This document shows, one piece after another, positions 5,484 to 28,764 of a stretch of 32,293 nt of DNA. The notes under the pieces are model-generated. The model had not been told where the DNA came from. It was given only the letters and a program-made list of their open reading frames with translations, and made no database searches. Made by a program: the position numbers and the translations under genes. Source of the DNA: a virus; IMG/VR virus record IMGVR_UViG_3300011416_000027, positions 1 to 32,293 of that record, one strand, 5' to 3'. How positions within the stretch are numbered: the first letter of the stretch is position 1; every line of letters starts with the position of its first letter.

Positions 5484-5488
5484 AACTT

Positions 5489-9411: not shown

Positions 9412-10498
9412 TAGCTAATTTTTTTTTATGCGACCGCTTTACAGTGCCGGGCTTTTCAATAACCTTTTTTTCTTTGCCAGGAAACACTTCGTGTTTCTCC
9501 TTTACGGGTTCAATGATTTGTTTTTCCAGTGGGGTGTGCAGTGCTTCAATATAGGCCTTGCCCGTTTCCATAAATTGTAATAATGTTTTTAAATTATTGT
9601 ATTTGTTGCGCTTCTTGCCGCGCCTTACAGCCAACGCATACGTTGGCTCTACGTTTAACGATTCAATTGCATTGCGGTAGCCCGCCACATCCTGCCCCGT
9701 TACATATATCGCCGCATCGCCGCAATTTTCGCGCAGGCCCGGCGTATCGGAACAAATAACGGGTATGCCTGAAGCCATCGCTTCCGAGGCCACCATTCCC
9801 CAGGATTCATATACCGAAGGCATTATTAAGATCCGGGTGCGGTCGTATATGGTTTTCATATCCGCCTGTGTGGGCATAAACTGTATGTTTCGCGTCTGCG
9901 GGTTCTCAATTATCTGCGTCCCATAGCCGCCATGCACCCCCATAAAGCGCGTGCCGGGCATCGCTGGCGCTAACTGCCGCGCCATAAACCCGCCGCCTTT
10001 TTCATACGTGCAATTAACCAGCGTTACGTATTCATTGTAAAAATGGTCGGTGTCATTATTCCAGTGATCCGTATCAATAGGCGGGCGGCATACAATAAAG
10101 GGTAGAGACAACGCATGCGTTGTCTTTATCTCATCCCGTAAGGCCACGCTGTTATAAATAACAAAGTTTTGCGGTGGCGCCTGTAACAAGGCTTCCGGCA
10201 GCATATTGTTATGAAGCAAATGGTAAACGGGTTTGTTATGAAACCACCCTAAATTTATCGCGGCATCCTCATTGAGTAAATGCGTTATTACCTTATCGGC
10301 CCACTGATACCGCGCGGCGATATTGCGCTGGTTACTTATTACCTTAATGCCTTCAAAAGTGTATTCGTGATCCTCGTCAATGCTTACGATAACATCGTGC
10401 CCGTTATCCTGTAAGTAAATGGCTATCTCATGCAAAAACTTTTCCGCCCCGGCTAAAGTGCGGGGTAAATAGTAGTGTGCATGGATAAAGATTTTCAT
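9404..10498 (-). CDS. GT4-type glycosyltransferase (364 aa)
   Basis: It is a GT-B fold glycosyltransferase. The N-terminal Rossmann half starts MKIFIHAHYYLPRTLAGAEK. The C-terminal nucleotide-sugar half carries the E-x7-E motif in YESWGMVASEAMASGIPVI. ATG 10498 is chosen because it overlaps the previous stop (ATGA); an upstream extension is less likely. Two palindromic coding repeats lie inside it, near residues 125-131 and 284-290. It sits between head and tail genes in the late operon, so glycosylation of a virion protein is plausible but inferred. The acceptor and sugar are unknown. Confidence 0.88.
   Translation of the reverse strand: MKIFIHAHYYLPRTLAGAEKFLHEIAIYLQDNGHDVIVSIDEDHEYTFEGIKVISNQRNIAARYQWADKVITHLLNEDAAINLGWFHNKPVYHLLHNNMLPEALLQAPPQNFVIYNSVALRDEIKTTHALSLPFIVCRPPIDTDHWNNDTDHFYNEYVTLVNCTYEKGGGFMARQLAPAMPGTRFMGVHGGYGTQIIENPQTRNIQFMPTQADMKTIYDRTRILIMPSVYESWGMVASEAMASGIPVICSDTPGLRENCGDAAIYVTGQDVAGYRNAIESLNVEPTYALAVRRGKKRNKYNNLKTLLQFMETGKAYIEALHTPLEKQIIEPVKEKHEVFPGKEKKVIEKPGTVKRSHKKKLANG
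9629..9648. repeat. Coding palindrome, copy a (imperfect)
   Basis: AGCCAACGCATACGTTGGCT has 8-bp perfect arms and one mismatched pair beside the centre. On the minus strand it encodes VEPTYALAV in the glycosyltransferase. CTAC follows it on the plus strand, as with copy c. Confidence 0.85.
10106..10125. repeat. Coding palindrome, copy b (perfect 20 bp)
   Basis: AGACAACGCATGCGTTGTCT reads identically on both strands. It encodes IKTTHALSL in the glycosyltransferase, near residues 125-131, in the same phase as the other copies. Its GTAG flank is on the opposite side, as if inserted in the other orientation. Confidence 0.92.
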
Positions 10499-10743
10499 TT
10501 GTTGTTCCTTATTATAAAAAACCCTGTCAATAAAACCGCCGCGCTTATCACGTACCAAACCAGCGGCTTTAAACTGTATTCTGAAGCATGTGTTATTCTT
10601 ACTGTTCTGTTATGGTACGTCACCCCGCTATCAATATGCATGCTGTCGCGCGTTACTATCGTGCTGTCAATCGTTCCGCCCGGTCGCCTTATTACGGCAC
10701 AGGAGGCGAATAATAACAGCACTATTACAATTAATTTTTTCAA
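10495..10743 (-). CDS. Small lipoprotein with C-terminal TM, u-spanin candidate (82 aa)
   Basis: The N-terminus MKKLIVIVLLLFASC is a lipoprotein signal with a lipobox (LFASC, Cys15). The C-terminus has one membrane segment at about residues 61-78 (LVWYVISAAVLLTGFFII) followed by RNNK. A lipid anchor at one end and a membrane span at the other is the architecture of unimolecular spanins such as T1 gp11, which fuse inner and outer membrane in the last step of lysis. It is shorter than T1 gp11. No endolysin is next to it, so this is a moderate inference. The start overlaps the DUF3820 gene by 4 nt. Confidence 0.6.
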   Translation of the reverse strand: MKKLIVIVLLLFASCAVIRRPGGTIDSTIVTRDSMHIDSGVTYHNRTVRITHASEYSLKPLVWYVISAAVLLTGFFIIRNNK

Positions 10744-10970
10744 TCATCTTTATTAATTTGATCCACCAACCTTTTAACTATTTCCGTTTTGCGCTTTTCG
10801 TGTTGCAATTGCTCGCGCAATTGCGCTTCATGCTCCATCAGGTATATAAGCAGATCGCGCCGCCTGCCCCATCGCCTGTTATCGAATATCCAAAGCAGGT
10901 AATTAGCGGGTATATCCGCCATCCTTTTGCCCTGGTGTTTGCCCGTGGGCATTATGCTATGTTCATTCAT
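10740..10970 (-). CDS. DUF3820 family protein (76 aa)
   Basis: The conserved core is PTGKHQGKRMADIPANYLLW, the 'M-P-x-G-K-y-k-G-k ... dlP.-YL-x-W' pattern of DUF3820. These small proteins are common in phages and their function is not established. The C-terminal third is a charged helix (HEAQLREQLQHEKRKTEIVK). The ATG at 10970 is preferred; it overlaps the methyltransferase end by 8 nt. An earlier ATG at 10982 is possible. Confidence 0.75.
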   Translation of the reverse strand: MNEHSIMPTGKHQGKRMADIPANYLLWIFDNRRWGRRRDLLIYLMEHEAQLREQLQHEKRKTEIVKRLVDQINKDD

Positions 10971-11532
10971 TATGTAGGACACTGTTCGTAAATTTTGCGA
11001 CGGTCATCTTTTGGTTAAACTGGTCCTTTATATGCCCGTCCTTTAGTATTACAAAACCCATTCGCATGAAGTCCAATGGCTCGTAAAAGGCGCGGTGTGT
11101 CTCTAACTCGTTGCCGTATTCCGCCTTTTGCGGCACCCATTCGCCGGGAGTGCTAATTAGCAGGATACCGCCGGGTGTTAAGTGCTTTACCAGTTCAATT
11201 ACTATCTCAAAGCCTTCGGCCCGGCTCATGTGCTCTATAACGTCCAAAAACAATATGCAATCGTATAAAGAGCTTCGCGCGTAGTCCTCTAAATGTGCCC
11301 TTATGGGCCGCACCCAAACCATGTTATAATGCCGCCAGTTGGCATTTTTATAATCTACAAATGGTTCTATGCCTTCGAGCTTCGTTTTTTCACCGACGCC
11401 CATATCTACGTACTGCCTCACCACTGCGCCATAAAACCCGCTGCCGCAGCCTACATCCAAAACGGTCGCCGGGTTGCGGCTGTTTAACTCGCAGGCGATA
11501 AGGGAAACGATTGAGAAACTGGAAATTGGCAT
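10963..11532 (-). CDS. Class I SAM-dependent methyltransferase (189 aa)
   Basis: Motif I is VLDVGCGSGFYG at residues 24-35, followed by LEGIEPF and the post-motif LFLDVIEHM, then LTPGGILLISTPG. This is the profile of small-molecule or protein/sugar methyltransferases of the Methyltransf_11/23 type, not of a DNA methyltransferase (no DPPY/NPPY). The start is set at ATG 11532. The longer reading frame would run through a terminator hairpin at 11537-11565. With the nearby glycosyltransferase it may modify a virion or surface glycan; the target is unknown. Confidence 0.82.
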   Translation of the reverse strand: MPISSFSIVSLIACELNSRNPATVLDVGCGSGFYGAVVRQYVDMGVGEKTKLEGIEPFVDYKNANWRHYNMVWVRPIRAHLEDYARSSLYDCILFLDVIEHMSRAEGFEIVIELVKHLTPGGILLISTPGEWVPQKAEYGNELETHRAFYEPLDFMRMGFVILKDGHIKDQFNQKMTVAKFTNSVLHNE

Positions 11533-11536
11533 ATTG

Positions 11537-11565
11537 AAAAACGCCCGACCGATCAGGGCCGGGCG
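11537..11565 (-). terminator. Rho-independent terminator after capsid gene
   Basis: On the minus strand CGCCCG pairs with CGGGCG around a GC-rich loop, followed by TTTTT. It lies between the capsid stop (11591) and the methyltransferase ATG (11532). It would cut expression of downstream genes relative to capsid. Confidence 0.8.
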
Positions 11566-11590
11566 CTCCATAATAAAAATTAAAAAAACA

Positions 11591-12817
11591 CTAAGCGAAA
11601 ATGAACGCGCCAGGCTGCTCAACTACAAGGACCTCACGTGCTTCCACGCGCACGGTAATCATGTTTTTGATCACATTATCTTGATCCTGTTCGAAGAATT
11701 CAACTTTAAGCGTATCAGCCACGGCTATCGCCGCCTGTGTAAAGTCGCCGACAATGGTCTTACCGGTTGCCACCCAATTGGCTGGCCTTACGGGTATGCC
11801 GGCAATGCGGATCGTGCCATCAGGAGCAGCAACAACGCCACCCGGTAAAGTGTAACCGGCTGCGCTCGTGCTCTTCAGCAAGGTCGCCCACTGCGCAAAC
11901 GTAGTGATGATTGCATTGGCCGCGAAATTGGCGGCGCCCAGGTTGGCGATATAATCAATCAGCTTCTCCGCATACGTAGCGCCCGGTGCGGTGGTGCTGC
12001 CCGTTGCAACAGCGGTGAGGTCGGTGTAAAACTGTAAGTTTTCGGCCTTGTAGAATTCGCGTAAAAGAATGCGCGGCAGCCATGTTTGTAAGAATTGTAA
12101 GTCCTGAAGCATTTGCTTACTCACGCGGGCATAACCGGCAATGTAATCGGCGGTATAATTCACCATAGTGAACTTGGCCTCAATCTGCGGTTTTGCGGTG
12201 TTTTCTGTTGGCACCCTGCTTGCGCTGCCTGTAGGCGCGGTTTCACGCGGCAAAACAATAAGCCCGGTGCTGGTTTGCACTATTTCCACCAGGTCGCGGA
12301 AGTTGAATATTTGATTGGGTAATATAGCGGGCTGCAACTGCTGGCGGGCCATGCTGCCGGTAATACTGCCGGTGGTGGTCATGTCGCCTTTGATATTGAA
12401 CGCCTGTGAATATCCTGTGCGCACCTGCTTAATGGCGGAATGGTTTTCCTGAAGCACGCTTTTAAGCTGCCCGGCAAATCCGCCGCCGTACTCATCAGGC
12501 AAATAAATGGTATTGGCTTTTTTTATCAGGTCATCGAGTGCCTTTTGGTTGGCCTCATCGCGCGTATCCTTTGTGGCCTGCCAGTCGGCAAAGGCTTTTT
12601 GCGAGGCTTCAAAATCGGTTTTCATTTTATCCTGTTCGGCCTTTATTTCGTCGGCCGATTTCTGAATTTTCTTAATGCCGTCCTCAGTGGGTTTCAGCAT
12701 ATTTTTAAGGTCCTCATCGCCGTCGGGTGCATCGGATTTATAACAGGCGAAACCAAAGCGGGTAACCCTGCCGGGCAATTTTGCCAGGTGCGCAGGGGCG
12801 AAAAATGTTTTTTTCAT
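11591..12817 (-). CDS. Major capsid protein, HK97 fold (408 aa)
   Basis: The N-terminal third (residues about 35-105) is a long charged coiled coil (DGIKKIQKSADEIKAEQDKM), the delta/scaffold domain normally removed by the prohead protease. The fold proper begins about residue 105, with the helix and E-loop region (KTSTGLIVLPRETAPT-like stretch). A typical C-terminal AIAVADTLKVEFFEQDQDNV is followed by TVRVEAREVLVVEQPGAF. The gene follows the protease directly and precedes a strong terminator. About 300 residues would remain after cleavage, the usual size. Confidence 0.95.
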   Translation of the reverse strand: MKKTFFAPAHLAKLPGRVTRFGFACYKSDAPDGDEDLKNMLKPTEDGIKKIQKSADEIKAEQDKMKTDFEASQKAFADWQATKDTRDEANQKALDDLIKKANTIYLPDEYGGGFAGQLKSVLQENHSAIKQVRTGYSQAFNIKGDMTTTGSITGSMARQQLQPAILPNQIFNFRDLVEIVQTSTGLIVLPRETAPTGSASRVPTENTAKPQIEAKFTMVNYTADYIAGYARVSKQMLQDLQFLQTWLPRILLREFYKAENLQFYTDLTAVATGSTTAPGATYAEKLIDYIANLGAANFAANAIITTFAQWATLLKSTSAAGYTLPGGVVAAPDGTIRIAGIPVRPANWVATGKTIVGDFTQAAIAVADTLKVEFFEQDQDNVIKNMITVRVEAREVLVVEQPGAFIFA

Positions 12818-12822
12818 TTTTG

Positions 12823-13566
12823 TCAGTTGTGAATGAATAATGAATTTAGACGCGTTGCAATTACTTCCGCCTTGCGTTTGTTATCCGGCGGGGTGGCTGC
12901 ACCTGGAGCCGGTCCCGTGGTTTCGTTTGAAAGAGAAATTATTGCTTGAAAAAGTTGTTTATTGTAGAGTAATAAGCTTTCAATTGTTTCGTCGCAAATA
13001 TCCGCGGCGGCGCAAAAGCGCTCAATTGCGGCATGCTTTAGTAAAAGGGTTTCGGTCATCGTCTTACCGGCCTTTTGCTTAAGGCCCGTTAAGGGTGTTT
13101 CTGAATTAGCACCCCAGCCGGTGAGCGATGAGCCTTCCCAAAGTTGCAAAGAAGTTAAAAGGGTAACGTCTTTATTCGTGGCTTCCGGCTTTGAATCTAA
13201 TACCTTATAGCCTATTGAATGTTCCGTGATAAGATCCGATTCTACCATCTTTATAAACTCTTTCCCCGCGGTATGATTGCCCACCTTGCTTTCGTAATAA
13301 AGCCCGGTAGCATCTTCTTTTAGTACCATTATTTTACCGAGCGGCTGCTCAGGCCGGTGATTAAGTAAGTGCTTAATCCGTGGCTGTTTGCTGTCCGGGC
13401 CGCGGTCTATTATCGTCTTTGCAAAGGCGCCCGGCATCACTATGTCGCCATCCGAATCCACATTGCCGAAGGCGGAAAAATAGCCGGTAACAATGCCCGT
13501 TTTCAGGTCGGCATCTTTAAAGCTGGCCGGAATTACAGCGGTTTTGTAATTGTATATATTTTCCAT
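12823..13566 (-). CDS. Prohead protease, HK97 family (247 aa)
   Basis: This serine protease matures the prohead by removing the capsid delta domain. The motifs are GYFSAFGNVDSDGDIVMPGA (residues 28-47), His70 in HLLNHRPEQPLG and Ser117 in EHSIGY, the expected catalytic His and Ser. The C-terminal part beyond about residue 165 is helical and hydrophilic, in line with a self-cleaved tail. ATG 13566 is chosen over a TTG at 13620, because a promoter box lies just upstream of 13620. The coding block here has its own promoter, separated from the packaging genes by an opposed cassette. Confidence 0.92.
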   Translation of the reverse strand: MENIYNYKTAVIPASFKDADLKTGIVTGYFSAFGNVDSDGDIVMPGAFAKTIIDRGPDSKQPRIKHLLNHRPEQPLGKIMVLKEDATGLYYESKVGNHTAGKEFIKMVESDLITEHSIGYKVLDSKPEATNKDVTLLTSLQLWEGSSLTGWGANSETPLTGLKQKAGKTMTETLLLKHAAIERFCAAADICDETIESLLLYNKQLFQAIISLSNETTGPAPGAATPPDNKRKAEVIATRLNSLFIHN

Positions 13567-13593
13567 GCGGGGGAAAGGCCGTTTTTGAACGTG

Positions 13594-13609
13594 TCCGCCT
13601 ACCGGCGGA
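13594..13609. repeat. GC-rich inverted repeat (6-bp arms)
   Basis: TCCGCC-TACC-GGCGGA lies in the leader of the protease gene and is similar to the repeat at 3722-3737. It has no T-run. Confidence 0.55.
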
Positions 13610-13617
13610 AGGCATTT

Positions 13618-13625
13618 CAAAATTA
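13618..13625 (-). promoter_or_regulatory. Bacteroidetes -7 box (TAATTTTG) for protease/capsid operon
   Basis: On the minus strand TAATTTTG matches TAnnTTTG. It is part of a 16-base sequence (ATTTGTACTAATTTTG) repeated exactly on the plus strand at the cI promoter (29922-29937). It would start the protease-capsid transcript, about 45-55 bases from the ATG. An inverted repeat (TTAGTAC-N6-GTACTAA, 13623-13642) overlaps it and may be an operator. Confidence 0.65.
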
Positions 13626-13670
13626 GTACAAATAAGTACTAAAAGCACTAATTTATTAAAAGGCACTTAA

Positions 13671-13700
13671 ATGGTAAGATATATTTTACCATGTGGTAAA
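13671..13700. promoter_or_regulatory. Overlapping inverted repeats, possible operator
   Basis: ATGGTAA (13671-13677) pairs with TTACCAT (13686-13692). TTTACCA (13685-13691) pairs with TGGTAAA (13694-13700). The three half-sites lie just upstream of a near-match -7 box (TTACTTTG, 13708-13715) and of the plus-strand cassette start, as expected for a repressor target. Confidence 0.5.
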
Positions 13701-13735
13701 GTATTATTTACTTTGTGGAACAATAGCAGAAAGAT

Positions 13736-13975
13736 ATGAAAACGAATAAGGGGAAAATAGTGATCGAAAAAATAAACTACTTCGGCGGTGAAGATTTTAA
13801 CGCGAAAGCACTTTACAGAAAAAACGGGAAGCTTTATTTGTGTCATATCCATATTGATTTTTTCAACCTAAAAATTTATGCCGAACGCCAACAACCAAAA
13901 GAATGTAAAGTTTTGACCGGGTTTGAGGCTGCCGTCAATGCCTATGCAAAAGAAACAAACTGGTTGTTCGCTTAA
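13736..13975 (+). CDS. Hypothetical protein, plus-strand cassette (79 aa)
   Basis: This is the first gene of a four-gene block facing the opposite way to the head genes. No family is recognised. It is a small mixed alpha/beta protein with a basic N-terminus (MKTNKGKIVIEKINYFGGED) and a KECKVLTGFEAAVNAYAKE C-terminus. It ends two bases before the next start, so the genes are an operon. An operator-like inverted repeat lies upstream. Opposite orientation, own promoter and terminator fit a moron (an accessory gene expressed from the prophage), which is an inference. Confidence 0.7.
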   Translation: MKTNKGKIVIEKINYFGGEDFNAKALYRKNGKLYLCHIHIDFFNLKIYAERQQPKECKVLTGFEAAVNAYAKETNWLFA

Positions 13976-13977
13976 AT

Positions 13978-14247
13978 ATGAAAACACTTTTAGAAATATT
14001 TTACAAGGATTTAGATAACGAGCCAAACATCTTAAACATTGAGCCAATGAAGGATATTTTAAAGCCCCTTAATGCCCGCGTATTCTTTACGCTGTATTGC
14101 CCGCAGGTCGGCAATTACACCCACAAAATGAGGGGCAGGGACGGCCACGGCAGGCCTTTACAGTTCACGCCGGAAGATAAACAACTCATTGCGGCGGCGC
14201 TAAAGCAAATGGCCGCGGAAATTAGTAAACAATTAAAAAACATATAG
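13978..14247 (+). CDS. Hypothetical protein, plus-strand cassette (89 aa)
   Basis: No family is recognised. The protein has a central GNYTHKMRGRDGHGRPLQFT segment, Gly/Arg/His-rich, followed by a C-terminal amphipathic helix (DKQLIAAALKQMAAEISKQL). It is cytosolic by composition, with no signal or membrane segment. It is two bases downstream of the preceding gene and one base upstream of the secreted-protein gene. Confidence 0.65.
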   Translation: MKTLLEIFYKDLDNEPNILNIEPMKDILKPLNARVFFTLYCPQVGNYTHKMRGRDGHGRPLQFTPEDKQLIAAALKQMAAEISKQLKNI

Positions 14248-14248
14248 T

Positions 14249-14659
14249 ATGAAAAAATCAATCCTTGCCCTCGCGATTGCAGTGTCTTTAACTTTTAGCG
14301 CATCAGCGCAAACATGGCCGAAACCACAATTAACTAAAGCCTCTGCCGCTTATGGTAAGTGGATAAATATGGAAGGCGTTACCATGAAACTAAATAAGCT
14401 CTCCCCCGTAGCAATCAAAGAAGCGGTTACAGAAGTAAAGGAACTGCTTAAATTAATTGATGCGGATTATTATTCGCCGACAGTTGATAACTCCCTTTTC
14501 TATTTAAACGAAACGGAAGAGGATTACGCTAAATTCTATGTAAATGCCTCAATTGACTTTTCAAAGGTTGAAAAAGCATGGAAGGGGCTTTATAATGGTA
14601 AGCAATATCTGATAACATTGGCTACTACCAAAGAAACTATTTCAATTTGCTTTCGATAA
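14249..14659 (+). CDS. Secreted protein with signal peptide (136 aa)
   Basis: MKKSILALAIAVSLTFSASA is a clear Sec signal peptide with cleavage expected after ASA, before QTWPKPQ. The mature part (about 116 aa) is a mixed-charge domain containing TEVKELLKLIDADYYSPTVD and ends in ISICFR. No catalytic motif or lipobox is seen. Export to the periplasm from a phage cassette with its own terminator suggests an accessory function in the lysogen, such as surface change or superinfection exclusion. This is inferred. Confidence 0.75.
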   Translation: MKKSILALAIAVSLTFSASAQTWPKPQLTKASAAYGKWINMEGVTMKLNKLSPVAIKEAVTEVKELLKLIDADYYSPTVDNSLFYLNETEEDYAKFYVNASIDFSKVEKAWKGLYNGKQYLITLATTKETISICFR

Positions 14660-14666
14660 ACAACGT

Positions 14667-14689
14667 AAGCCCCTTAACGGGGCTTTTTT
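14667..14689 (+). terminator. Rho-independent terminator after cassette gene 3
   Basis: GCCCC (14669-14673) pairs with GGGGC (14679-14683), followed by six T. It lies eight bases after the stop of the secreted-protein gene and closes the first part of the plus-strand cassette. Confidence 0.85.
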
Positions 14690-14710
14690 ATTTTCTTTAC
14701 CTTCGCCTTT

Positions 14711-14926
14711 ATGATTAATCCTTCCGACCTCGCCACGCCTGTCATCATCAAAACAAACGACGATTCCGGCCATATTATCGAAACCGTTACCGGCGGCTTC
14801 ACCAAACGCGAAGTAATTATTTACGCCTTTATGCAGTCCGTGATTGAAACGGAGAACGAGCATGATCCGGCACAGGTAGCGATAAAGGCGGCTGCACTGG
14901 CCGAAGCGTATTTTAATGCGGGGTAA
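14711..14926 (+). CDS. Small phage protein, 'GFxKRE' family (71 aa)
   Basis: The core GGFTKREVIIYAFMQS then AAALAEAYFNAG matches a common small phage family ('GLTKREYFA ... YADALI'). A second, distant member lies at 26906-27124 (GFNKREEALLRFM). The gene is downstream of a terminator, so it needs its own promoter. Its last base (14926) abuts the stop of the opposing nuclease gene (14927) with no gap. The function of this family is not known. Confidence 0.7.
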   Translation: MINPSDLATPVIIKTNDDSGHIIETVTGGFTKREVIIYAFMQSVIETENEHDPAQVAIKAAALAEAYFNAG

Positions 14927-15472
14927 CTATAAAAGATGTTCAAATCTTTGCATGGAAGCAACTTTAGCTGCCCTCTTCAATCGTTCTATATCACATTTAT
15001 TGCCATATGCGTTTATATCATAAGAACATTTAGGGCAGCAGTCATTATTTTCATCTGCAAAATCTATTTTGGCTGTTCCGCATCCTTCACAAATCCATAA
15101 ATACATGTTTAAATCCCACCACCCTTCCCCCCTAATACATAATTGATAGCCGCCTTCTTCATGCCAATTACCCCAAATATTTTTTATTGGTAAGTCCCGA
15201 AAAAGAACAAGGTTATCGGTAAACCATTTAGATGCCGGTATATCAGCGGCTTCATAAAAACCGGGCTTTATTTCAACATATACACCCTTACTTTTTCGCA
15301 AATAAACATCAGGTAAATAGAAGTCCGGCAAATAACATTCTCCTTCATCGCTTTTAAACCCCTCTTGTTCATACAAATATTTAATTCGTGCATAGTCAAA
15401 AAATACCGCCCATTTAGCCTCTAAACGTGACCGGTAATAATTGCCATTGAAAAGTGTATTAATTGGTTCCAT
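14927..15472 (-). CDS. PD-(D/E)XK nuclease-like protein with zinc ribbon (181 aa)
   Basis: RSRLEAKWAVFFD (residues 14-26) is followed by CYLPDFYLPD (Asp50) and VYVEIKPG (Glu67, Lys69). This arrangement (E, D, ExK) is that of a small PD-(D/E)XK nuclease family widespread in phages. A zinc ribbon follows at residues 128-149 (CEGC and CPKC). It lies between the MuF-like gene and the plus-strand cassette. A resolvase-like or packaging-related cutting role is possible; the substrate is unknown. Confidence 0.78.
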   Translation of the reverse strand: MEPINTLFNGNYYRSRLEAKWAVFFDYARIKYLYEQEGFKSDEGECYLPDFYLPDVYLRKSKGVYVEIKPGFYEAADIPASKWFTDNLVLFRDLPIKNIWGNWHEEGGYQLCIRGEGWWDLNMYLWICEGCGTAKIDFADENNDCCPKCSYDINAYGNKCDIERLKRAAKVASMQRFEHLL

Positions 15473-15477
15473 ATTCT

Positions 15478-16404
15478 TTAATGCGCATTAAACGCCGGCA
15501 GCGGCAGCCTTTCTGCATCCAGCCTCACCGGCATCCCATTGGCATCACGCACCACATTAAAGCCCACGGTACAACGGCATTGTATCACGTTAGCCGCTTC
15601 GCCCGTTTTTGGGTCGCCCGGCTGCATTATATCATCAACGCCGCCGTTTCTATTGGGTACATAAAACGGCTCATCCATTTTCGCCGTTACGCCGTGCATC
15701 GCGGCATGACTAAACTCATCGCGCGGTATGTGCCGCGTTCTGTGATCCCTGGCAGCGATCCAAAGTTTCTCCGTAAGCAATCCCGTCTTTTTAGCCCCCT
15801 GTACGGCCCCGAAGTTCGCGGCTTTGATTGTCTCCGTTCTGGCGATTACAATGGCTCTATTGGCGGGGAAATCGTCTTTAAGCATACTATCCGCCACCTG
15901 CTGAATGCTGCGCCCCTCTTCCTGCGCCCGGATTACCTGCTGCAGGATCCAGTCTTTCATAGTGTCGCTAATCGGCAGCACCGCCTCGTTAAGCAGGTTA
16001 AGCCGGAAGTAAGCGATTATTTCGGCCACCATTTCCTCATTGTAGCCGATAGGCATCAGGGCTTTCGTGACCATTGCTGATTGACCATTGACCATTGCCT
16101 TTTTGCCATTCTGCAAGGCATGCCTTGCAGCTACATCGCCTTGCTTTTTCACCATCTGGTAAACATGCCCACCCCAAACGCTGCCGGCATCGGTGTAAAT
16201 GTTTTGAATGGTGATAGCGATCCCGGAAGGCTTCAGCATGTTTTCATCCAGGTATCTTATCGCCGCCTGCGTGGTCGGCTCATCCGTGGCGTTAAGAATC
16301 ATTTGCTTTAAGTTCGCGTGGATCTTCGGGCGCCAGGCGTTTTGACGGCTTACAGTAAAGCGTTTATAAGCGGCGTAATGTTTGGAAATCTCGGCGGCGT
16401 TCAT
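15478..16404 (-). CDS. MuF-like minor head protein (308 aa)
   Basis: The C-terminal half has the MuF/SPP1 gp7 signature: IVIARTETIKAANFGAV, then KLWIAARDHRTRHIPRDEF, the HG segment, the DEPFYVPN loop, MQPGDPKT and ANVIQCRCTVGF. These are minor head proteins that act near the portal in head assembly. The gene follows portal at a short distance, as usual. One palindromic coding repeat lies within residues about 92-98 (VAARHALQN). The N-terminal 100 residues are helical and carry no recognised domain. Confidence 0.9.
   Translation of the reverse strand: MNAAEISKHYAAYKRFTVSRQNAWRPKIHANLKQMILNATDEPTTQAAIRYLDENMLKPSGIAITIQNIYTDAGSVWGGHVYQMVKKQGDVAARHALQNGKKAMVNGQSAMVTKALMPIGYNEEMVAEIIAYFRLNLLNEAVLPISDTMKDWILQQVIRAQEEGRSIQQVADSMLKDDFPANRAIVIARTETIKAANFGAVQGAKKTGLLTEKLWIAARDHRTRHIPRDEFSHAAMHGVTAKMDEPFYVPNRNGGVDDIMQPGDPKTGEAANVIQCRCTVGFNVVRDANGMPVRLDAERLPLPAFNAH
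16111..16130. repeat. Coding palindrome, copy c (perfect 20 bp)
   Basis: CTGCAAGGCATGCCTTGCAG reads identically on both strands. It encodes VAARHALQN in the MuF-like protein, in the same phase as the other five copies. CTAC follows on the plus strand. Confidence 0.9.
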
Positions 16405-16413
16405 AGTACGAAG

Positions 16414-16776: not shown

Positions 16777-16779
16777 CCT

Positions 16780-16983: not shown

Positions 16984-16995
16984 AGTGTAGGGGGT

Positions 16996-17268: not shown

Positions 17269-17292
17269 GGGTAATTATTATTTCCTGCAAAA

Positions 17293-17306
17293 TACTAATA
17301 TTAGTA
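17293..17306. promoter_or_regulatory. Palindrome TACTAATATTAGTA, possible operator
   Basis: This perfect 14-bp palindrome begins right after the -7 box (on the minus strand) and contains two TTAGTA half-sites. Related TTAGTAC/GTACTAA sites occur at 13623-13642 and 29925-29931. Confidence 0.5.
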
Positions 17307-21018: not shown

Positions 21019-21021
21019 AAT

Positions 21022-22806: not shown

Positions 22807-22817
22807 TTGAATGCAAG

Positions 22818-23276
22818 TTACGATAAGTAAATACACCGGTTCCCATCAACCATTAAAAAGCAAATAGGTAAATCAAATCGCTTCTTAATCAGCAATAGAT
22901 TGCTATTTATTTCGGGTGAAGCTATAACAAGTCTCGGCATATTTTTCAATCTTGCTTCCATGTGTAAGCCATAAAATAAAACCTGTCCTATCGCTGTTAA
23001 TAAATCGTTTCGGTTCGTATTCGTTCTTTTAACTTCAATAGCGGTTCCCGTTCCGTCGGTATGCCAAATCATTATGTCCGCAATAATTCGGGTGTTTCCC
23101 AAAAACATTGTATAACCCCGTTTCACCCTTTCAATTTTGCCCCAGCCGCTGTTAAAAGATATTTCGTCTATGTTATCCAAAATATGCTCGACGATACCAT
23201 GCTCCTTACCGGTAAATTCAAATTTTGGTATCAAATCACTTTCTGAAATACCTGTCATTATTTCTAATATTTCCAT
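22818..23276 (-). CDS. PD-(D/E)XK nuclease-like protein (152 aa)
   Basis: RIIADIMIWHTDG (Asp67), then AIEVKRTNTN (Glu81, Lys83) and AIGQVLFYG (Gln98) form a complete PD-(D/E)XK motif series of the type seen in restriction-like and VRR-like nucleases. The substrate is unknown. It lies just upstream of the small terminase, followed by a 60-base gap to the next gene. It may serve in recombination or in defence. Confidence 0.75.
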   Translation of the reverse strand: MEILEIMTGISESDLIPKFEFTGKEHGIVEHILDNIDEISFNSGWGKIERVKRGYTMFLGNTRIIADIMIWHTDGTGTAIEVKRTNTNRNDLLTAIGQVLFYGLHMEARLKNMPRLVIASPEINSNLLLIKKRFDLPICFLMVDGNRCIYLS

Positions 23277-23336
23277 GCTGTAATTTACTATATATCATTA
23301 ATTATCAATCGTCTATAATCACTATTTAATGTAGAA

Positions 23337-23609
23337 TTAAACTACTTTAAATTCCGAAAAATTCATTTTTGAAGGCACATGATCCAGGAAGAAAACGGGC
23401 TTATCATTGCTTTCGCGGATCTTGTGGAAATGCTTTTTGCGGAGCTGGATAACCCAGGACATCAGCAGCGCTTCCCTATCGCTTACCGTGGGGCAGTGAT
23501 CGAAGTTGATAAGTGCCCGGTCAATCAGAATATCGCGTATGTACATTTCAAGAAACATGTTGTTTGCTAGAGACAGCGCATGCGCTGTCTGTACTCTAAA
23601 GCGGTTCAT
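23337..23609 (-). CDS. Hypothetical protein with palindrome-coded N-terminus (90 aa)
   Basis: No family is recognised. The N-terminus RVQTAHALSLAN is coded by the palindromic element at 23571-23590. A second ATG (23558) would avoid it, so whether the repeat is translated here depends on the start. The rest is a helix-rich protein (IRDILIDRALINFDHCPTVS). The first ATG overlaps the stop of the preceding gene by 14 nt, in favour of translation coupling from there. Confidence 0.65.
   Translation of the reverse strand: MNRFRVQTAHALSLANNMFLEMYIRDILIDRALINFDHCPTVSDREALLMSWVIQLRKKHFHKIRESNDKPVFFLDHVPSKMNFSEFKVV
23571..23590. repeat. Coding palindrome, copy d (perfect 20 bp)
   Basis: AGACAGCGCATGCGCTGTCT reads identically on both strands. 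It encodes VQTAHALSL at the N-terminus of the 90-aa protein, in the same phase as the other copies. TAG precedes and GTAC follows on the plus strand, as in copy e. Confidence 0.92.
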
Positions 23610-24303
23610 AAATGTGCGGCATATTCAGGCCCGCAAAGCGTTTAAAGCTGTATTCGATAGCAAGGCGGCGGCAAAGGTCTTCCAGCGAATTAGCGGGCGT
23701 TACCAGCGCCAGCAGCGGGCCTATAGCCATCGCTTCACGCGGCTGCTGCTCCACTTCCTTATCGCGGGCTGCAATAATTTTCTTAGCCTGTTCAACGAAT
23801 CGTTGCGGAAGTTCGTTCACTATGCCAAAATCCCGGCAAAGCGTTTTCCATGCGAAGCCGGGCAGCAGGTCGAAACAAAGCCTGTTCTCTAAAAACAGTT
23901 GGTACTTCGATTCCAGCATGGCGCGGGTGTCCTGAAGATCCTGCCAGCGGGAAGGCTTCGGCGTTACGGTAAGCGGCGGCAATTTATTGGAGCGTTCGGC
24001 GTAGTCCTGCGCCTGTGACAAGTTGGAAAAATAGCGTTGCATTACGCGGGCCACCAAAGCCACGTTAATCGTCTTGCCAAAATCCTGTTCGTCGGTGCCG
24101 TATTTGCGGAAAGCGTCTTCAATTTGCGGCGTAGTGATACCGGGGAAGTCTTCGGCAAGTTTCAGGCTTAGCTGGGTGCAAAGCGTTTCCAGTGCGGCCG
24201 GGTTCTTGTTAAGTTTCCAGCCGGTAATTACGGAAATCGTTATCAGCAGCTCAGGCAAGTCTTTTGAGAATTTCGGCGGCGGCTTGTTTTGGATCGCAAT
24301 CAT
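23596..24303 (-). CDS. Probable replication-region protein (235 aa)
   Basis: No known domain is firmly recognised. The N-terminal half is helical (LPELLITISVITGWKLNKNP) and contains ITTPQIEDAFRKYGTDEQDF, which resembles conserved proteins beside replication genes of Bacteroidetes phages. The C-terminal half has CFDLLPGFAWKTLCRDFGI. Its start overlaps the DUF4373 protein gene by 53 nt. A helicase-loader or replisome-organising role is an inference from place. Confidence 0.6.
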   Translation of the reverse strand: MIAIQNKPPPKFSKDLPELLITISVITGWKLNKNPAALETLCTQLSLKLAEDFPGITTPQIEDAFRKYGTDEQDFGKTINVALVARVMQRYFSNLSQAQDYAERSNKLPPLTVTPKPSRWQDLQDTRAMLESKYQLFLENRLCFDLLPGFAWKTLCRDFGIVNELPQRFVEQAKKIIAARDKEVEQQPREAMAIGPLLALVTPANSLEDLCRRLAIEYSFKRFAGLNMPHIYEPL

Positions 24304-24868
24304 AAAAATGTTTTTGGCTGTTCAAAGAAATATTTTTTAAATCATCCCCTGTTGTTTCCTCCGCGCTTTCCGGCTGCTCGCGCGTTTTATTTCCTTTTAT
24401 TTTATTTCCTTTTATTTCTTTTCTTTTTATTTGTGCACTTTTCTCCGTATTTACTGGCAGCCGGCCCGTAGTTTCCTCAGAGGAAATTAAATAGTACTCT
24501 GGAATAGTACTTTTGCGATGAAGTTGGTTTGCTATATTATTCATTCTGCGTTGAATACCTCTTGACGTTAATACGGCATGCTTTTCAAACATCTTCTTAT
24601 CAAAAAAGCTACGCTTTAGTAATTCCTGTATTATTCCGTGAATTTTCACCCGGGTGATTTTCCTGCCCAAAGAAGCGGCGAATAATATTTCGGCGTCTTC
24701 ATCCCATTTAATAAAACCGTTGTTTTTATAAATGCGGCATAGCAGGCGGATGATAATTGCTTCCGCATTCAGGCCATAGGCGGCCGTGGCATATCTTATT
24801 TTTTCATCCTCTGGAAAATCTATATCCAAAGGGAAATAGTCTAAACCATTTTTCGCAGGTCGCCCCAT
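24251..24868 (-). CDS. DUF4373/Lin1244-type replication protein (205 aa)
   Basis: The N-terminal part NGLDYFPLDIDFPEDEKI is the signature of DUF4373 (the N-terminal domain of Lin1244/Lin1753-type proteins), followed by LNAEAIIIRLLCRIYKNNGF. This winged-helix domain is found in phage replication initiators. The C-terminal region is a low-complexity charged linker (KRKEIKGNKIKGNKTREQPE) with no DnaD domain recognised. It shares base 24868 with the stop of the previous gene. Confidence 0.75.
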   Translation of the reverse strand: MGRPAKNGLDYFPLDIDFPEDEKIRYATAAYGLNAEAIIIRLLCRIYKNNGFIKWDEDAEILFAASLGRKITRVKIHGIIQELLKRSFFDKKMFEKHAVLTSRGIQRRMNNIANQLHRKSTIPEYYLISSEETTGRLPVNTEKSAQIKRKEIKGNKIKGNKTREQPESAEETTGDDLKNISLNSQKHFYDCDPKQAAAEILKRLA

Positions 24869-25215
24869 TACTTTATTATTTTAAGTTTTATAATCTCCTC
24901 AATTTCCTGCCGCAGATTGATGATAATATCAAAATTTGTTTGCGGCAGTTCGCTTATCACACGGTAACGGAAATCTTTGTATAAGTTAAGGGCCTCTCCA
25001 ATGGGCATGAATTCAATAAGGATCGCCAGGCTAAGCTGGTCGGGTTTATGGTATAACTTCCCCCAGTTAAAGCCATCACCCACGGCATTGGCGTCTAATA
25101 GCTGTTCTGAAAGCATAGGATCGAGCCACACATCATTTATCCAAATGTCGCCGGATTCGATAGCGCCGAGGATGTGGAGTGATTCGGGGAGCGCGGCAAG
25201 TTGTGAGGGGGTCAT
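24868..25215 (-). CDS. Hypothetical protein (115 aa)
   Basis: No family is recognised. The protein is rich in Leu and acidic residues (LPESLHILGAIESGDIWIND) and contains DGFNWGKLYHKPDQLSLAIL, with a charged helical C-terminus. It is joined without gap to both neighbours (one-base overlaps at 24868 and 25215). This shows an operon with the replication and nuclease genes. Confidence 0.65.
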   Translation of the reverse strand: MTPSQLAALPESLHILGAIESGDIWINDVWLDPMLSEQLLDANAVGDGFNWGKLYHKPDQLSLAILIEFMPIGEALNLYKDFRYRVISELPQTNFDIIINLRQEIEEIIKLKIIK

Positions 25216-25769
25216 CAGAATAAATTTAATTGTATCGGTTTTCCGTTCGTATTTAAATCATCAGGCGGCTTTATTAAAAAGAATAGGTGTTCTTTTATTA
25301 TTTCGCATGGGATCACCCTAAAAGCACTCCGCCAAACATTACCACGTAAATCATAACTAATGTCATTTCTTATTAATCGGTAATAGTTTTTTATTTTATT
25401 ATAATCATCTACAAGCTTTTTTGATCTTTTCATTCCAACAACATTTACAGTTTTTTTTGAAATAGAAACTATAACATCAGCCGTTGAAGTAAAAAACCAC
25501 CCAGGAATAAATTGATTTATTTCAGGTCGGTAATCCGACCAATCCTCAATAATGATCTCAAGATTATCCCTATAATTACCTTTGCATTCCCATTTATGCC
25601 CCAGTGAAGCAATAAAATCGGCACCAATTTTCTGATATTGTTTTATATTAGTTACATCTGCAACCTGTAAGCCAAACGGGGTTAAATAGTGATCACTAAA
25701 AAGCGCCTCACATATCTTACCTTCAGTAATACATTTTTCAAACGACACATATTTATTCGGATCTTTCAT
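25215..25769 (-). CDS. Restriction endonuclease-like PD-(D/E)XK protein (184 aa)
   Basis: KIGADFIASLGHKWECKGNY gives Asp51, Glu61 and Lys63 (D-x9-ExK), a complete nuclease motif, with a helper Glu near residues 16-21. The C-terminus ends IQLNLF. The ATG at 25769 overlaps the TGA of the MT-A70 methyltransferase (ATGA), and the two genes are tied together. This suggests a restriction-modification-like pair or a phage nuclease with DNA-protecting partner. Specificity is unknown. Confidence 0.72.
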   Translation of the reverse strand: MKDPNKYVSFEKCITEGKICEALFSDHYLTPFGLQVADVTNIKQYQKIGADFIASLGHKWECKGNYRDNLEIIIEDWSDYRPEINQFIPGWFFTSTADVIVSISKKTVNVVGMKRSKKLVDDYNKIKNYYRLIRNDISYDLRGNVWRSAFRVIPCEIIKEHLFFLIKPPDDLNTNGKPIQLNLF

Positions 25770-26812
25770 ATTCTGTTTCCCCAATTAAACCAGCCGTTAT
25801 CTTCATTGCTGCGGCTAAACAGTTCAATGCGCGGCAATGCCCCTACTAAATCCGTTATTAACTGGCGAATGATTGCAGGCTTTTCCGAATGCTCGCTTAC
25901 GGGTGCCTCAACTATTTGGCTAATGGCCGCGTTCATTCGTGTAACAGTTCCCTTTGTTGCAATGAGGCACAGTTCAACATTTGCCCGCGTCCACGATCCG
26001 TTACCAAAAAACCAACTATCAATATTTTTATTTTTCTTAAGCCATACAAAGCCGCAGGTAGAATAATTAAAGCCCCACGATTGTATTACTTCAAAGCATT
26101 CTTTTAATATTGGAAATGTTACCCAGATAAATAAAATACAATTGTCATCCGCGATATTTTGAACAGGCAACTTTTTAATGTCATCCATTGACATGGTAGG
26201 ATAATGCAGTGATTGGTTTTTAAATCCGCCTTCCCAATATTGCCATGGCGGATCCGCATAAATGATATTAAACTTTTGATCCGTGTTAAAAATATCTTCT
26301 GTGAAATCTTCAACGCCTTTAATGCTTTCCTGATATTTTCCTTCAGCTTCCGTTACGGTTTTCTTTTTAATGAAATGGGTAATTTTTTTTAAGGCTTCGG
26401 ATCTTGTTGGTAGGGTTTCTTTTTGCTTCGCTTCCGTTTTTATTAGTTCAATAATTTCAGGAAATGAAGCAAGCATTTCAAAGCGGTAAGCGTCATATTT
26501 ATCAAAGCCTAAACTTCTTAATTGCTCTAACTTAGTTGCACTATTGCTACTAAGTTCTAAATCATTTCGCTTGCCTTGTTTGGTATCCATGCTCTGCATT
26601 ATTCCGCCCAATTTTACCTCGGCATCTAAAAGATATTCAGCGCCTAAAATTGCCGTTTCTAATGCCTGTTTTCTGTCCGTTGATCCTTCCGGTAATGTTT
26701 TAATAAAAGCGCGTTGTGCCCATAATAATTCACGCCCCACCTTTATAAATTTTGCGAGGTCGTTAATATTAGCCGGTAAATTATTTTCAAATATTTTTAG
26801 TTGTTCTGTCAT
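25766..26812 (-). CDS. MT-A70 family DNA N6-adenine methyltransferase (348 aa)
   Basis: The catalytic motif DPPW is at residues 187-190 in NIIYADPPWQYWEG. It is followed by ILFIWVTFPILKECFEVIQS and WLKKNKNIDSWFFGNGSWTR, in the order seen in MT-A70 enzymes of phages. About 170 residues precede it (DLAKFIKVGRELLWAQRAFI ... LGGIM), a helical region found in similar phage proteins that may bind DNA. A terminator lies just upstream, so it probably heads a transcription unit with the nuclease. Confidence 0.9.
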   Translation of the reverse strand: MTEQLKIFENNLPANINDLAKFIKVGRELLWAQRAFIKTLPEGSTDRKQALETAILGAEYLLDAEVKLGGIMQSMDTKQGKRNDLELSSNSATKLEQLRSLGFDKYDAYRFEMLASFPEIIELIKTEAKQKETLPTRSEALKKITHFIKKKTVTEAEGKYQESIKGVEDFTEDIFNTDQKFNIIYADPPWQYWEGGFKNQSLHYPTMSMDDIKKLPVQNIADDNCILFIWVTFPILKECFEVIQSWGFNYSTCGFVWLKKNKNIDSWFFGNGSWTRANVELCLIATKGTVTRMNAAISQIVEAPVSEHSEKPAIIRQLITDLVGALPRIELFSRSNEDNGWFNWGNRI

Positions 26813-26821
26813 AAGCTAATT

Positions 26822-26858
26822 AAAAAAAGGCTGCCCCGCCCTCGCAGGAGACAGCCCC
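26822..26858 (-). terminator. Rho-independent terminator before the methyltransferase
   Basis: On the minus strand GGCTG (26856-26852) pairs with CAGCC (26833-26829) around a GC-rich centre, followed by seven T. It separates the 72-aa gene and earlier genes from the methyltransferase. Confidence 0.75.
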
Positions 26859-26905
26859 ACTGTTATAAAAAACCAAACGATATAATAAAAGGGTACATCA
26901 TTGCA

Positions 26906-27124
26906 TTATTTATTTAGTTCATTGAAATAGGCTGTTGCAAATATTGACGCTTGTTCTGCAATTCTTTTAGCGTGCGATTCGGCTATATCATTTCCCGAAT
27001 AAACATCTGGTGACATGAACCGACACATAAACCTTAGTAATGCTTCTTCCCGTTTATTGAAGCCCACTTCGGCAATAACAGAATCAGGATGAACGGGGTA
27101 AGCACTATCATTTGAATTTGTCAT
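26906..27124 (-). CDS. Small phage protein, 'GFxKRE' family (72 aa)
   Basis: Core GFNKREEALLRFMCRF, then RIAEQASIFATAYFNELNK. It is a distant paralogue of the protein at 14711-14926. The ATG overlaps the stop of the 60-aa gene by 4 nt. Function unknown, as for the family. The gene ends before the terminator at 26822-26858. Confidence 0.7.
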   Translation of the reverse strand: MTNSNDSAYPVHPDSVIAEVGFNKREEALLRFMCRFMSPDVYSGNDIAESHAKRIAEQASIFATAYFNELNK

Positions 27125-27303
27125 AATGTTTCTTTATAAATTAAATAAAGCGTTTCAATTGAAACCAGGCGCCGCCCCTGTTTCAGATTTATCCACCTGT
27201 CATTACCATCGTAAGGCTGCCAGCCGTTGCGGTCGGCCCATTTAACCAGCCCGCGCTTTGACTTGCGGGCCACGGTGAGGGGCATGTGTTTTAATTCAAT
27301 CAT
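27121..27303 (-). CDS. Small putative DNA-binding protein (60 aa)
   Basis: The sequence MPLTVARKSKRGLVKWADRN followed by GWQPYDGNDRWINLKQGRR and a YLIYKE end has the look of the Mu-type DNA-binding domain (helix-turn-helix with conserved Trp and 'R-x-V-s'). It is only as long as one such domain and has no other parts. A regulatory or excisionase-like role is possible, but this is not certain. Confidence 0.55.
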   Translation of the reverse strand: MIELKHMPLTVARKSKRGLVKWADRNGWQPYDGNDRWINLKQGRRLVSIETLYLIYKETL

Positions 27304-27308
27304 TGTAA

Positions 27309-28043
27309 TTAAATATTAGCCGGCACAGCCACCAGTTCCGCCAGGGTGCGCACCATGTTAGTTAATTCGGTTTCGGCCCTTGTAATGCGTTCTGCTAATT
27401 CCTTTAAATGCGCTTCATTGTAAGGTATTTCAATCACCTTTAACTGAAATTCAGCGATAGCAAAACGCGGATCATAGGAAACAAAATACCAATGTTTCGC
27501 GCCGGTAAATAACATATTGGCCATGCACTGCCAATAATATTTAGGGATCTCCGCGTAAAGCTCGGCGGCGTCTTTTATTAACAGGTGGCTTATATGCTCC
27601 GCACTATTATAGGGCGCCTTTATTTCCAGCCCTGCATCGGCCGAAATCATGCCATCAGGCGAGCCGCCGGCATATTCCGAATAATGAAAAAAGAAAGGGT
27701 TTGCTTTGCCAAAGTATTCGACTTTTAGATTGTAACGGGCCTCGAATGCTGCCACCGCATCCGGTTCCTGGGCGTTGCCCCACTCAATCGCGGCCAAGCC
27801 CGAAATATCCGGCCCGGCCGGTAAGTTGGTAAGCAGTTCGGCGGCCTTCATTTGTATGTAAGTCATGGCACCGTCGCCAAAATATTTATCTTTTGCGCGG
27901 CCTTTTTGCAGGATCTTGTGTATTTCGGAAGAGGTAAATTTTCCTATCCTTTCCTGTTTCCATTCAATCGTTTTTTCTAAATGGTTGTATTCTGTTTTTA
28001 GAGACAGGACATGTCCTGTCTGTACATTATTTTTATCAGGCAT
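27309..28043 (-). CDS. YqaJ/lambda-type 5'-3' exonuclease (244 aa)
   Basis: IEWKQERIGKFTSSEI (residues 26-41), WGNAQEPDAVAAFE near 88-101, SPDGM with Asp130, and GLEIKAPY with Glu140 and Lys142 fit the YqaJ family. It resects double-stranded DNA for recombination by the annealing protein. Its gene follows that of the Rad52/Sak-like annealer (8-nt overlap), a standard phage recombination pair. The N-terminus carries a palindrome-coded VQTGHVLSL at residues 7-15, ahead of the conserved core. Confidence 0.9.
   Translation of the reverse strand: MPDKNNVQTGHVLSLKTEYNHLEKTIEWKQERIGKFTSSEIHKILQKGRAKDKYFGDGAMTYIQMKAAELLTNLPAGPDISGLAAIEWGNAQEPDAVAAFEARYNLKVEYFGKANPFFFHYSEYAGGSPDGMISADAGLEIKAPYNSAEHISHLLIKDAAELYAEIPKYYWQCMANMLFTGAKHWYFVSYDPRFAIAEFQLKVIEIPYNEAHLKELAERITRAETELTNMVRTLAELVAVPANI
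28002..28021. repeat. Coding palindrome, copy e (perfect 20 bp)
   Basis: AGACAGGACATGTCCTGTCT reads identically on both strands. It encodes VQTGHVLSL at residues 7-15 of the exonuclease, same phase. TAG precedes and GTAC follows on the plus strand. Confidence 0.92.
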
Positions 28044-28764
28044 TTACGGGCGTGTTTAAAAGTTTTGCAATATTGTTTTGCACTTTGGAAAGGTTCTGTT
28101 CTTTTTTAGAAAGGTTATCGGCAAGGCTTACGGGCATATCCTTACGGTTTAAATCTTTACCGAACAGTTTACCCAATTTCTCCGCGGCGTCCTTAAAGGC
28201 GTATGTTTCCGCGGCCGGGGCGGCCATTTGAACGGCGGCGGTGTTTACCTGAGTAAAGTCCGTGGCGGCGGCGCCCTGCTTTGTTTGTATCGGGCTTGCA
28301 CCTATGCCGTCCTGCCAATCCCATTCACCACCCACCGGGTCCAAAACATAAAGGCGAACGGTTACGCAAACACTGTTGGCGATCACAGCACAATTTTTTA
28401 TTTCTACCCGCCATTTGGTATAAATCGAGGTGAGTAAGTATTCAATAATGTGAACAGGTATGTAACGGCTTCCGTTTGCGTATTGGTTTACTAAGATCCA
28501 TTCGGGCCGGGGCTCCTGGTTGAGCAGGATATTAAGATCATTATTGCGGGCGGCAAGTTCAACATTACCGTAAAGGCTGTTAATATCCGGCAGGTTGCGG
28601 CGGGCGGGCTGTTGAGCCAACGCATGCGTTGGCTGTACCTGCGGAGCTTGCGGTTCCGGCTGCTTTATTTCCGGGGCCTGTATATTAGCGGCGGCGCCTG
28701 TCATCTGCATCCGGGTTTGTTCGCGGGGGATCACCCTTGTTTTTGTTACTATATTACGGCTCAT
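28036..28764 (-). CDS. Rad52/Sak-like single-strand annealing protein (242 aa)
   Basis: The core region (residues about 84-200) contains EWILVNQYANGSRYIPVHII and YVLDPVGGEWDWQDGIGASP. It ends with AETYAFKDAAEKLGKLFGK, which resembles the C-terminal helix of Rad52/Sak annealers. Upstream is a Pro/Gln-rich linker (residues 25-55) that carries the palindrome-coded VQPTHALAQ. The YqaJ exonuclease directly downstream supports the role. The family call is by motif and place, not by search. Confidence 0.78.
   Translation of the reverse strand: MSRNIVTKTRVIPREQTRMQMTGAAANIQAPEIKQPEPQAPQVQPTHALAQQPARRNLPDINSLYGNVELAARNNDLNILLNQEPRPEWILVNQYANGSRYIPVHIIEYLLTSIYTKWRVEIKNCAVIANSVCVTVRLYVLDPVGGEWDWQDGIGASPIQTKQGAAATDFTQVNTAAVQMAAPAAETYAFKDAAEKLGKLFGKDLNRKDMPVSLADNLSKKEQNLSKVQNNIAKLLNTPVNA
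28615..28634. repeat. Coding palindrome, copy f (perfect 20 bp)
   Basis: AGCCAACGCATGCGTTGGCT reads identically on both strands. It encodes VQPTHALAQ at residues 43-51 of the annealing protein, in its low-complexity linker, same phase as the others. GTAC follows on the plus strand. Confidence 0.92.

What the first reader, a model, noticed from the sequence alone, without database searches (positions are those of the whole stretch)
9629..28634. Six 20-bp palindromes inserted in-frame in unrelated phage genes
Five perfect 20-bp palindromes (10106, 16111, 23571, 28002, 28615) and one imperfect one (9629) lie in minus-strand genes of unrelated function: a glycosyltransferase (twice), MuF-like head protein, a 90-aa unknown, the exonuclease and the annealing protein. 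All six are read in the same phase, with the central CAT as a whole codon (TAT in the imperfect copy). They give VEPTYALAV, IKTTHALSL, VAARHALQN, VQTAHALSL, VQTGHVLSL and VQPTHALAQ. The arms differ in sequence between copies yet stay self-complementary, which shows selection on pairing or exchange of arms. The other two phases of several copies are also free of stops, so phase is not simply forced by stop avoidance. This resembles Rickettsia palindromic elements. Whether a similar coding element is described in Bacteroidetes phages is not known to me.
Basis: partly seen in the sequence, partly recalled or inferred. Interest (0 to 1): 0.88.

Follow-up and report, generated by a model that had tools for sequence, protein, structure and literature searches.

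The report
Host REP hairpins inside phage genes
Six short DNA hairpins of a known bacterial repeat family (REPs, linked to the RAYT transposase) sit in frame inside the genes of a Bacteroidota-type phage; the family is already known, but finding so many of them within phage genes, partly overwriting gene sequence rather than simply adding to it, was not in the papers I could search.

Summary
In detail: five perfect 20-bp palindromes (about 0.03 expected by chance) plus one with a single mismatch, all in coding DNA and all read with the centre as one codon. They are not a new element. The same GTAC/GTAG-footed hairpin (8-bp stem, CATG loop, varying but self-complementary arms) occurs in 1–141 copies in each of 19 genomes checked, mostly Bacteroidota. 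It lies inside and beside a REP-associated tyrosine transposase (RAYT/TnpA_REP), always in the same reading phase. That matches the published subclass 2.4 'double-foot' REPs. The phage encodes no RAYT, so mobilisation in trans by a host RAYT is the likeliest source (inferred). The 'imperfect' copy is intact as a hairpin: its only mismatch is in the loop, at a tyrosine invariant among eight related glycosyltransferases. At three interior window sites the net gain is 0, 4 and 2 residues; at three comparable sites in other phages it is 4, 6 and 6. So the hairpins partly overwrite native codons or use sequence already there. New member of a known kind; the overwrite pattern is the interesting lead.

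The parts
9629..9652 (-). REP hairpin in the glycosyltransferase gene (VEPTYALAV): GTAG foot (+ strand ctac 9649-9652), stem AGCCAACG/CGTTGGCT, loop TATG; no net length change versus relatives
   Evidence: loop codon TAT = Tyr291 of the alignment, invariant in 8 glycosyltransferases; lies in a predicted helix
10102..10125 (+). REP hairpin in the same glycosyltransferase gene (IKTTHALSL, read on the minus strand): GTAG foot 10102-10105 on the + strand, stem AGACAACG, loop CATG; net +4 residues versus relatives
16111..16134 (-). REP-like hairpin in the MuF-like head protein gene (VAARHALQN): GTAG foot, stem CTGCAAGG, loop CATG; also in L153 (about 91% identical DNA), absent from L223 and L154
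23571..23594 (-). REP hairpin near the start of a 90-aa ORF (VQTAHALSL): GTAC foot, stem AGACAGCG, loop CATG
28002..28025 (-). REP hairpin near the N-terminus of the YqaJ-like exonuclease (VQTGHVLSL), in a stretch absent from relatives L229/L230: GTAC foot, stem AGACAGGA, loop CATG
28615..28638 (-). REP hairpin in an N-terminal extension, absent from relatives, of the annealing-protein-like ORF (VQPTHALAQ): GTAC foot, stem AGCCAACG, loop CATG
9404..10558 (-). carrier: GT4-type glycosyltransferase
   Evidence: (PF13692, PF00534)
15478..16404 (-). carrier: Phage_Mu_F-like head morphogenesis protein
   Evidence: (PF04233)
23337..23609 (-). carrier: 90-aa ORF without known relatives
27309..28043 (-). 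carrier: YqaJ-type recombination exonuclease
   Evidence: PF09588
28036..28764 (-). carrier: putative single-strand annealing protein; relatives in phages are hypothetical proteins, and the function is inferred from its position beside the exonuclease
   Evidence: (phrog_15333)

Best explanation
The six palindromes are copies of a REP family: 8-bp hairpins with a CATG-type tetraloop and GTAG/GTAC feet. They belong with the TnpA_REP (RAYT) transposases of published subclass 2.4, which are abundant in Bacteroidota and Cyanobacteria and carry the same hairpin in frame inside their own gene. Shown here: family identity, association with that RAYT, arm covariation, and absence of a RAYT from the phage record. 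Inferred: during lysogeny or infection, a RAYT of the bacterial host acted on single-stranded phage DNA (probably at replication forks) and placed host REPs there. Copies that broke a gene were lost. Those in the benign V(E/Q)TxHALS reading phase, in linkers, N-terminal tails or tolerant helix ends, remained. The hairpin does nothing for the phage protein; it is tolerated DNA. Suggested but not proven: the copies do not enter as clean 24-28 bp insertions, but overlay part of the native sequence or use existing microhomology, as in template-switch or single-strand annealing events.
For: Exact-pattern scans find the hairpin across Bacteroidota, Cyanobacteria and others and in other phage contigs; 1-141 copies per genome in 19 genomes, reversed-pattern control 0-1. 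17 of 19 such genomes encode a relative of one RAYT, which hits NCBIfam REP-associated tyrosine transposase NF047646 below its cut-off. About 30 RAYT loci carry the hairpin inside the gene between the HUH and Tyr motifs, always in the CAT/VET phase, often with flanking copies. This is the published subclass 2.4 description: motifs NH[IFV]H, WQ, YIxNNP, double-foot REPs, REPs in frame inside tnpA_REP (PMC6006769). Arms covary. Window copies share the feet, arms and phase. In one search, phage carriers with recognisable interior domains (portal L025, GH108 lysozyme L327, primase L337, head-type L329) are all in CAT phase. No Y1_Tnp in the record. Net length changes at interior sites are 0 to +6 residues.
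Against: The bacterial host is unknown and no RAYT from it was examined. The window arms AGCCAACG and CTGCAAGG were not found as an abundant family in any sampled genome. The viral record may be a fragment, so a phage-borne RAYT cannot be fully excluded. REP transposition in vivo by any RAYT rests on inference in the literature. The overwrite reading rests on relatives only about 45-70% identical, in variable linkers, where insertion followed by deletion could look the same.
Confidence: 0.87

Rival explanations
1. The palindromes formed in place from imperfect native palindromes by template-switched (quasi-palindrome) repair, without any mobile element.
For: Little or no net insertion at 9629, 10106 and 16111; native codons resemble part of the arms (MuF native CGG CAG GCT versus AGG CAT GCC; glycosyltransferase native Tyr TAT at the loop). 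Perfect complementarity with varying arms.
Against: The feet, CATG loop and arm motif AGAC(A/G) are shared with many unrelated genomes and with RAYT genes; independent origin of the same 24-mer motif is not credible. It may still act as a later homogenising step.
Confidence: 0.06
2. They are binding sites of a phage or host regulator (operators or 'stoperators') that happen to lie in genes.
For: Perfect 20-bp palindromes, several per phage genome.
Against: The arms differ at most positions between copies while pairing is kept, unlike a protein operator; the same motif is scattered in non-phage genomes and lies inside transposase genes.
Confidence: 0.03
3. A coding palindromic element in the manner of Rickettsia RPE, spread because its peptide is tolerated and its phase is selected.
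For: In-frame copies in unrelated genes, one preferred phase.
Against: Different tag (GTAG/GTAC instead of CGTC), different size (24-28 bp), mostly outside long ORFs in bacteria (35 of 206 copies in long ORFs), and a dedicated RAYT. It works like an RPE in being tolerated in frame, but is not one.
Confidence: 0.03

Closest known systems
Double-foot REPs of TnpA_REP (RAYT) subclass 2.4 / Bertels group 4 (PMC6006769)
   Same: GTAG-type foot with complementary foot at the other end, hairpin stem of 7-20 nt and loop of 2-5 nt, many copies per genome, RAYT motifs NH[IFV]H / WQ / YIxNNP, copies in frame inside the RAYT gene between HuH and Y, Bacteroidetes and Cyanobacteria
   Different: Here the copies lie in phage genes, in a phage record that encodes no RAYT; some window copies have degenerate second feet and arms (AGCC, CTGC) outside the common AGAC set
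Intragenic GTAG REPs of Proteobacteria and others (PMC3733652)
   Same: GTAG tag, REPs entirely inside ORFs of unrelated function, read in frame
   Different: That survey lists GTAG repeats in Proteobacteria, Cyanobacteria, Chloroflexi and PVC, and only CGTC repeats in Bacteroidetes; the passages I read describe bacterial genes, none phage
Rickettsia palindromic elements (RPE)
   Same: Palindromic repeats in frame in unrelated genes
   Different: CGTC tag (PMC3733652); larger elements (from general knowledge); no sequence relation to the hairpins here was seen

Membership tests
TnpA_REP subclass 2.4 double-foot REP | Short hairpin, fully paired stem 7-20 nt, loop 2-5 nt | tested here: met
   All six window copies: 8-bp perfect stem, 4-nt loop
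TnpA_REP subclass 2.4 double-foot REP | GT[AG]G guide at the 5' foot, complementary C[TC]AC at the 3' foot | tested here: inconclusive
   GTAG foot in three window copies (10106, 9629, 16111); the other three have GTAC on one side and CTAG/CTAA/CAAC on the other. Bacterial copies are most often GTAC/GTAG, and GTAG/GTAG is common
TnpA_REP subclass 2.4 double-foot REP | Many dispersed copies in the host genome | tested here: inconclusive
   Met for the family in other genomes: 1-141 copies. This phage's own host was not identified
TnpA_REP subclass 2.4 double-foot REP | Cognate RAYT with NH[IFV]H, WQ, YIxNNP in the same genomes, containing or flanked by the REP | tested here: met
   17 of 19 genomes; hairpin inside or beside the RAYT gene in most loci. 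Tested for the family, not for this phage's host
TnpA_REP subclass 2.4 double-foot REP | Cleavage or binding of the single-stranded hairpin by the cognate RAYT | not testable with these tools
   Needs purified protein
Rickettsia palindromic element (RPE-1) | CGTC tag at one end (PMC3733652) | tested here: not met
   Feet are GTAG/GTAC in all six
Operator-type palindrome | Constant recognition sequence in the arms | tested here: not met
   Arms differ: AGACAACG, AGACAGCG, AGACAGGA, AGCCAACG, CTGCAAGG

The most novel reading that the evidence does not exclude
REPs of this family spread by in-register replacement rather than insertion: single-stranded REP DNA (or a template switch onto a REP) overwrites 6 to 28 bp of a target that already resembles part of the hairpin foot, loop or arm. 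This would explain gains of only 0-6 residues, the fixed V(E/Q)T phase, and the retained native tyrosine at the loop. The phage's own exonuclease/annealing-protein pair might raise the rate.
Probability: 0.25. Interest if true: 0.75.

Novelty: new member of a known kind. Interest (0 to 1): 0.45.

Why it matters
To my knowledge, REP movement has not been watched directly. A phage with six copies in about 32 kb of nearly all-coding DNA, whose more distant relatives lack them, is a record of REP arrival in a foreign replicon, and it can be tested by sequencing close relatives. It also shows that host REPs can enter phage structural and recombination proteins as tolerated peptides, a source of protein length and sequence change, and it gives annotators a simple signature (V[EQ]TxHALS) for REP-derived peptides in Bacteroidota proteins.

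Tried and rejected
A codon-usage score to call intragenic copies was too strict (2 of 196) and was replaced by ORF criteria, which still include some spurious long ORFs and 5' leader regions; the 24 of 35 CAT-phase count is therefore supporting evidence only. RAYT loci picked by the best Pfam PF01797 scores were not flanked by the hairpin; those are other Y1 transposases, and the cognate ones were found with a subclass 2.4 protein query. The AlphaFold model of the MuF protein was poor (pLDDT 37) and is not used. Chitinophagaceae genomes gave only 38-39% MuF relatives, so the host was not found. A search of phage records with the 90-aa ORF found nothing. A short tandem repeat beside the MuF copy was considered as part of the element and set aside as a separate expansion. 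An alignment of Flavobacterium RAYT genes and their downstream copies was too variable to show the size of an empty site.

Full report
Observation. The six palindromes are real and at the stated places. Five perfect 20-bp palindromes compare with 0.03 expected and at most 2 in 60 simulations. All lie in minus-strand ORFs and all are read with the central CAT or TAT as a codon. Seen as single-stranded hairpins, all six have a perfect 8-bp stem and a 4-base loop; the 'imperfect' copy at 9629 differs only in the loop (TATG for CATG). The carriers are a GT4 glycosyltransferase (two copies), a Mu F-like head protein, a 90-aa ORF, a YqaJ exonuclease and a putative annealing protein. Near-identical contigs from other IMG/VR records carry five of the six.

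The family. In 144 distinct bacterial instances the three free positions of each arm were fully complementary in 130; shuffling gives 56, at most 70. The commonest feet are GTAC and GTAG. Nineteen genomes hold 1-141 copies of AGACNNNNCATGNNNNGTCT, against 0-1 for the reversed pattern.

The transposase. Four carrier ORFs in the first sample turned out to be a Y1/HUH transposase with the palindrome in the reading frame. A query with that protein, the palindrome peptide removed, found relatives in 17 of the 19 genomes; a query that still carried the peptide found them in 45 of 299 Flavobacterium genomes at E 1e-30 or better. In about 30 of these loci the hairpin sits inside the RAYT gene between the HUH motif and the WQ/Tyr region, always in the same phase, whatever the arm sequence, and further copies often flank the gene (a few genomes appear under two locus ids). 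The proteins hit NCBIfam REP_Tyr_transpos below its cut-off. PMC6006769 describes exactly this as TnpA_REP subclass 2.4: Cyanobacteria and Bacteroidetes, motifs NH[IFV]H, WQ, YIxNNP, double-foot REPs, and REPs inserted inside tnpA_REP without breaking the frame, between HuH and Y. Intragenic REPs in unrelated genes were also known (PMC3733652). The window palindromes are therefore members of a known kind of element. The phage record has no Y1 transposase.

Reading phase. All six window copies, all RAYT-internal copies, and the phage copies with recognisable interior domains (portal L025, GH108 lysozyme L327, primase L337, head-type L329) are in the phase that reads V(E/Q)TxHALS. In bacterial genes it is the majority but not universal: two genes of a type I restriction operon in L110 use the phase with a cysteine. 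If two or three phases are open, six of six has a probability of roughly 1 in 300 by chance, and less extreme where flanking stops close other phases. The phase is best explained by which copies proteins tolerate: the other phases bring cysteine or, in the GTAG orientation, a TAG stop.

Not clean insertions. Relatives lacking the palindrome do not show that at interior sites. At 9629 there is no net change against L157 and L158, and the loop codon TAT encodes a tyrosine that is invariant in all eight aligned glycosyltransferases, in a predicted helix. At 10106 the gain is four residues, near the end of a predicted helix. In the MuF protein, L223 (68% identical) reads GDLLTRQA-EGKK where the window reads GDVAARHALQNGKK, a gain of two, besides a separate 12-residue repeat. 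In other phages the portal gains four against Porphyromonas phages; the GH108 lysozyme gains six against two of three relatives (none against L356), and the primase gains six directly after native V-E. Some primase relatives have GTAGAA or GTCGAGACA at that point, close to the foot GTAGAGACA of the element. The three remaining window copies lie at the start of an ORF without relatives (23571) or in N-terminal stretches absent from relatives (28002, 28615). These comparisons use distant relatives in variable regions, so insertion followed by deletion remains possible; I hold the overwrite reading at about one in four.

Mechanism. Most likely a host RAYT acted on single-stranded phage DNA, and selection kept the copies that proteins tolerate. 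Biochemistry on other RAYT groups shows single-strand hairpin recognition and that changing the GTAG guide to GTAC shifts the cleavage dinucleotide (PMC8266576), so the GTAC feet seen here are compatible with guide function; this was not tested for this subclass. Host, transposition and timing are inferred.

Literature limit. No paper in the searched library was seen to join RAYT REPs with phage coding genes, but subscription papers are missing from it and only the leading results were read.

Noticed in passing
window 16060-16110 (minus strand): Beside the MuF copy, a tandem-like stretch (AATGGTCAATGGTCAATCAGCAATGGTC) adds about 12 residues (KAMVNGQSAMVT) absent from relatives L223 and L154; it looks like a separate short-repeat expansion.
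   Followed up: partly
L110 (Cytophagales MAG) 1675-5825: A type I restriction operon (HsdM, HsdS, HsdR) and a neighbouring RAYT gene are crowded with REP copies, including a tandem array of 33-bp period just before the HsdS ORF.
   Followed up: no
L077 (Bacteroidales MAG) 5543 and 7462-7516: Two histidine kinases carry tandemly expanded REP peptides (VQTRHALSQTETRRALS...) in what looks like the same loop of the ATPase domain.
   Followed up: no
L247-L262 (Flavobacterium RAYT loci): RAYTs of neighbouring branches carry peptides such as VETRHCLVS, VETLQCNVS and VETRLIAS at the same linker, apparently from REPs with other loops or odd lengths, in the same V-E-T frame.
   Followed up: partly
L036, L055, L062, L064, L118: The same REP appears in Cyanobacteria, Caenarcanales, Spirochaetes and Saganbacteria, which suggests horizontal spread of RAYT and REP between phyla.
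   Followed up: no
L153 (phage contig, MuF ORF 2778 onward): The MuF-like protein of this close relative continues into a long C-terminal extension that the window protein lacks.
   Followed up: no
window 28590-28764 (minus strand): The annealing-protein-like ORF has a roughly 46-residue N-terminal extension absent from relatives; a TTG inside the palindrome could serve as an alternative start.
   Followed up: no
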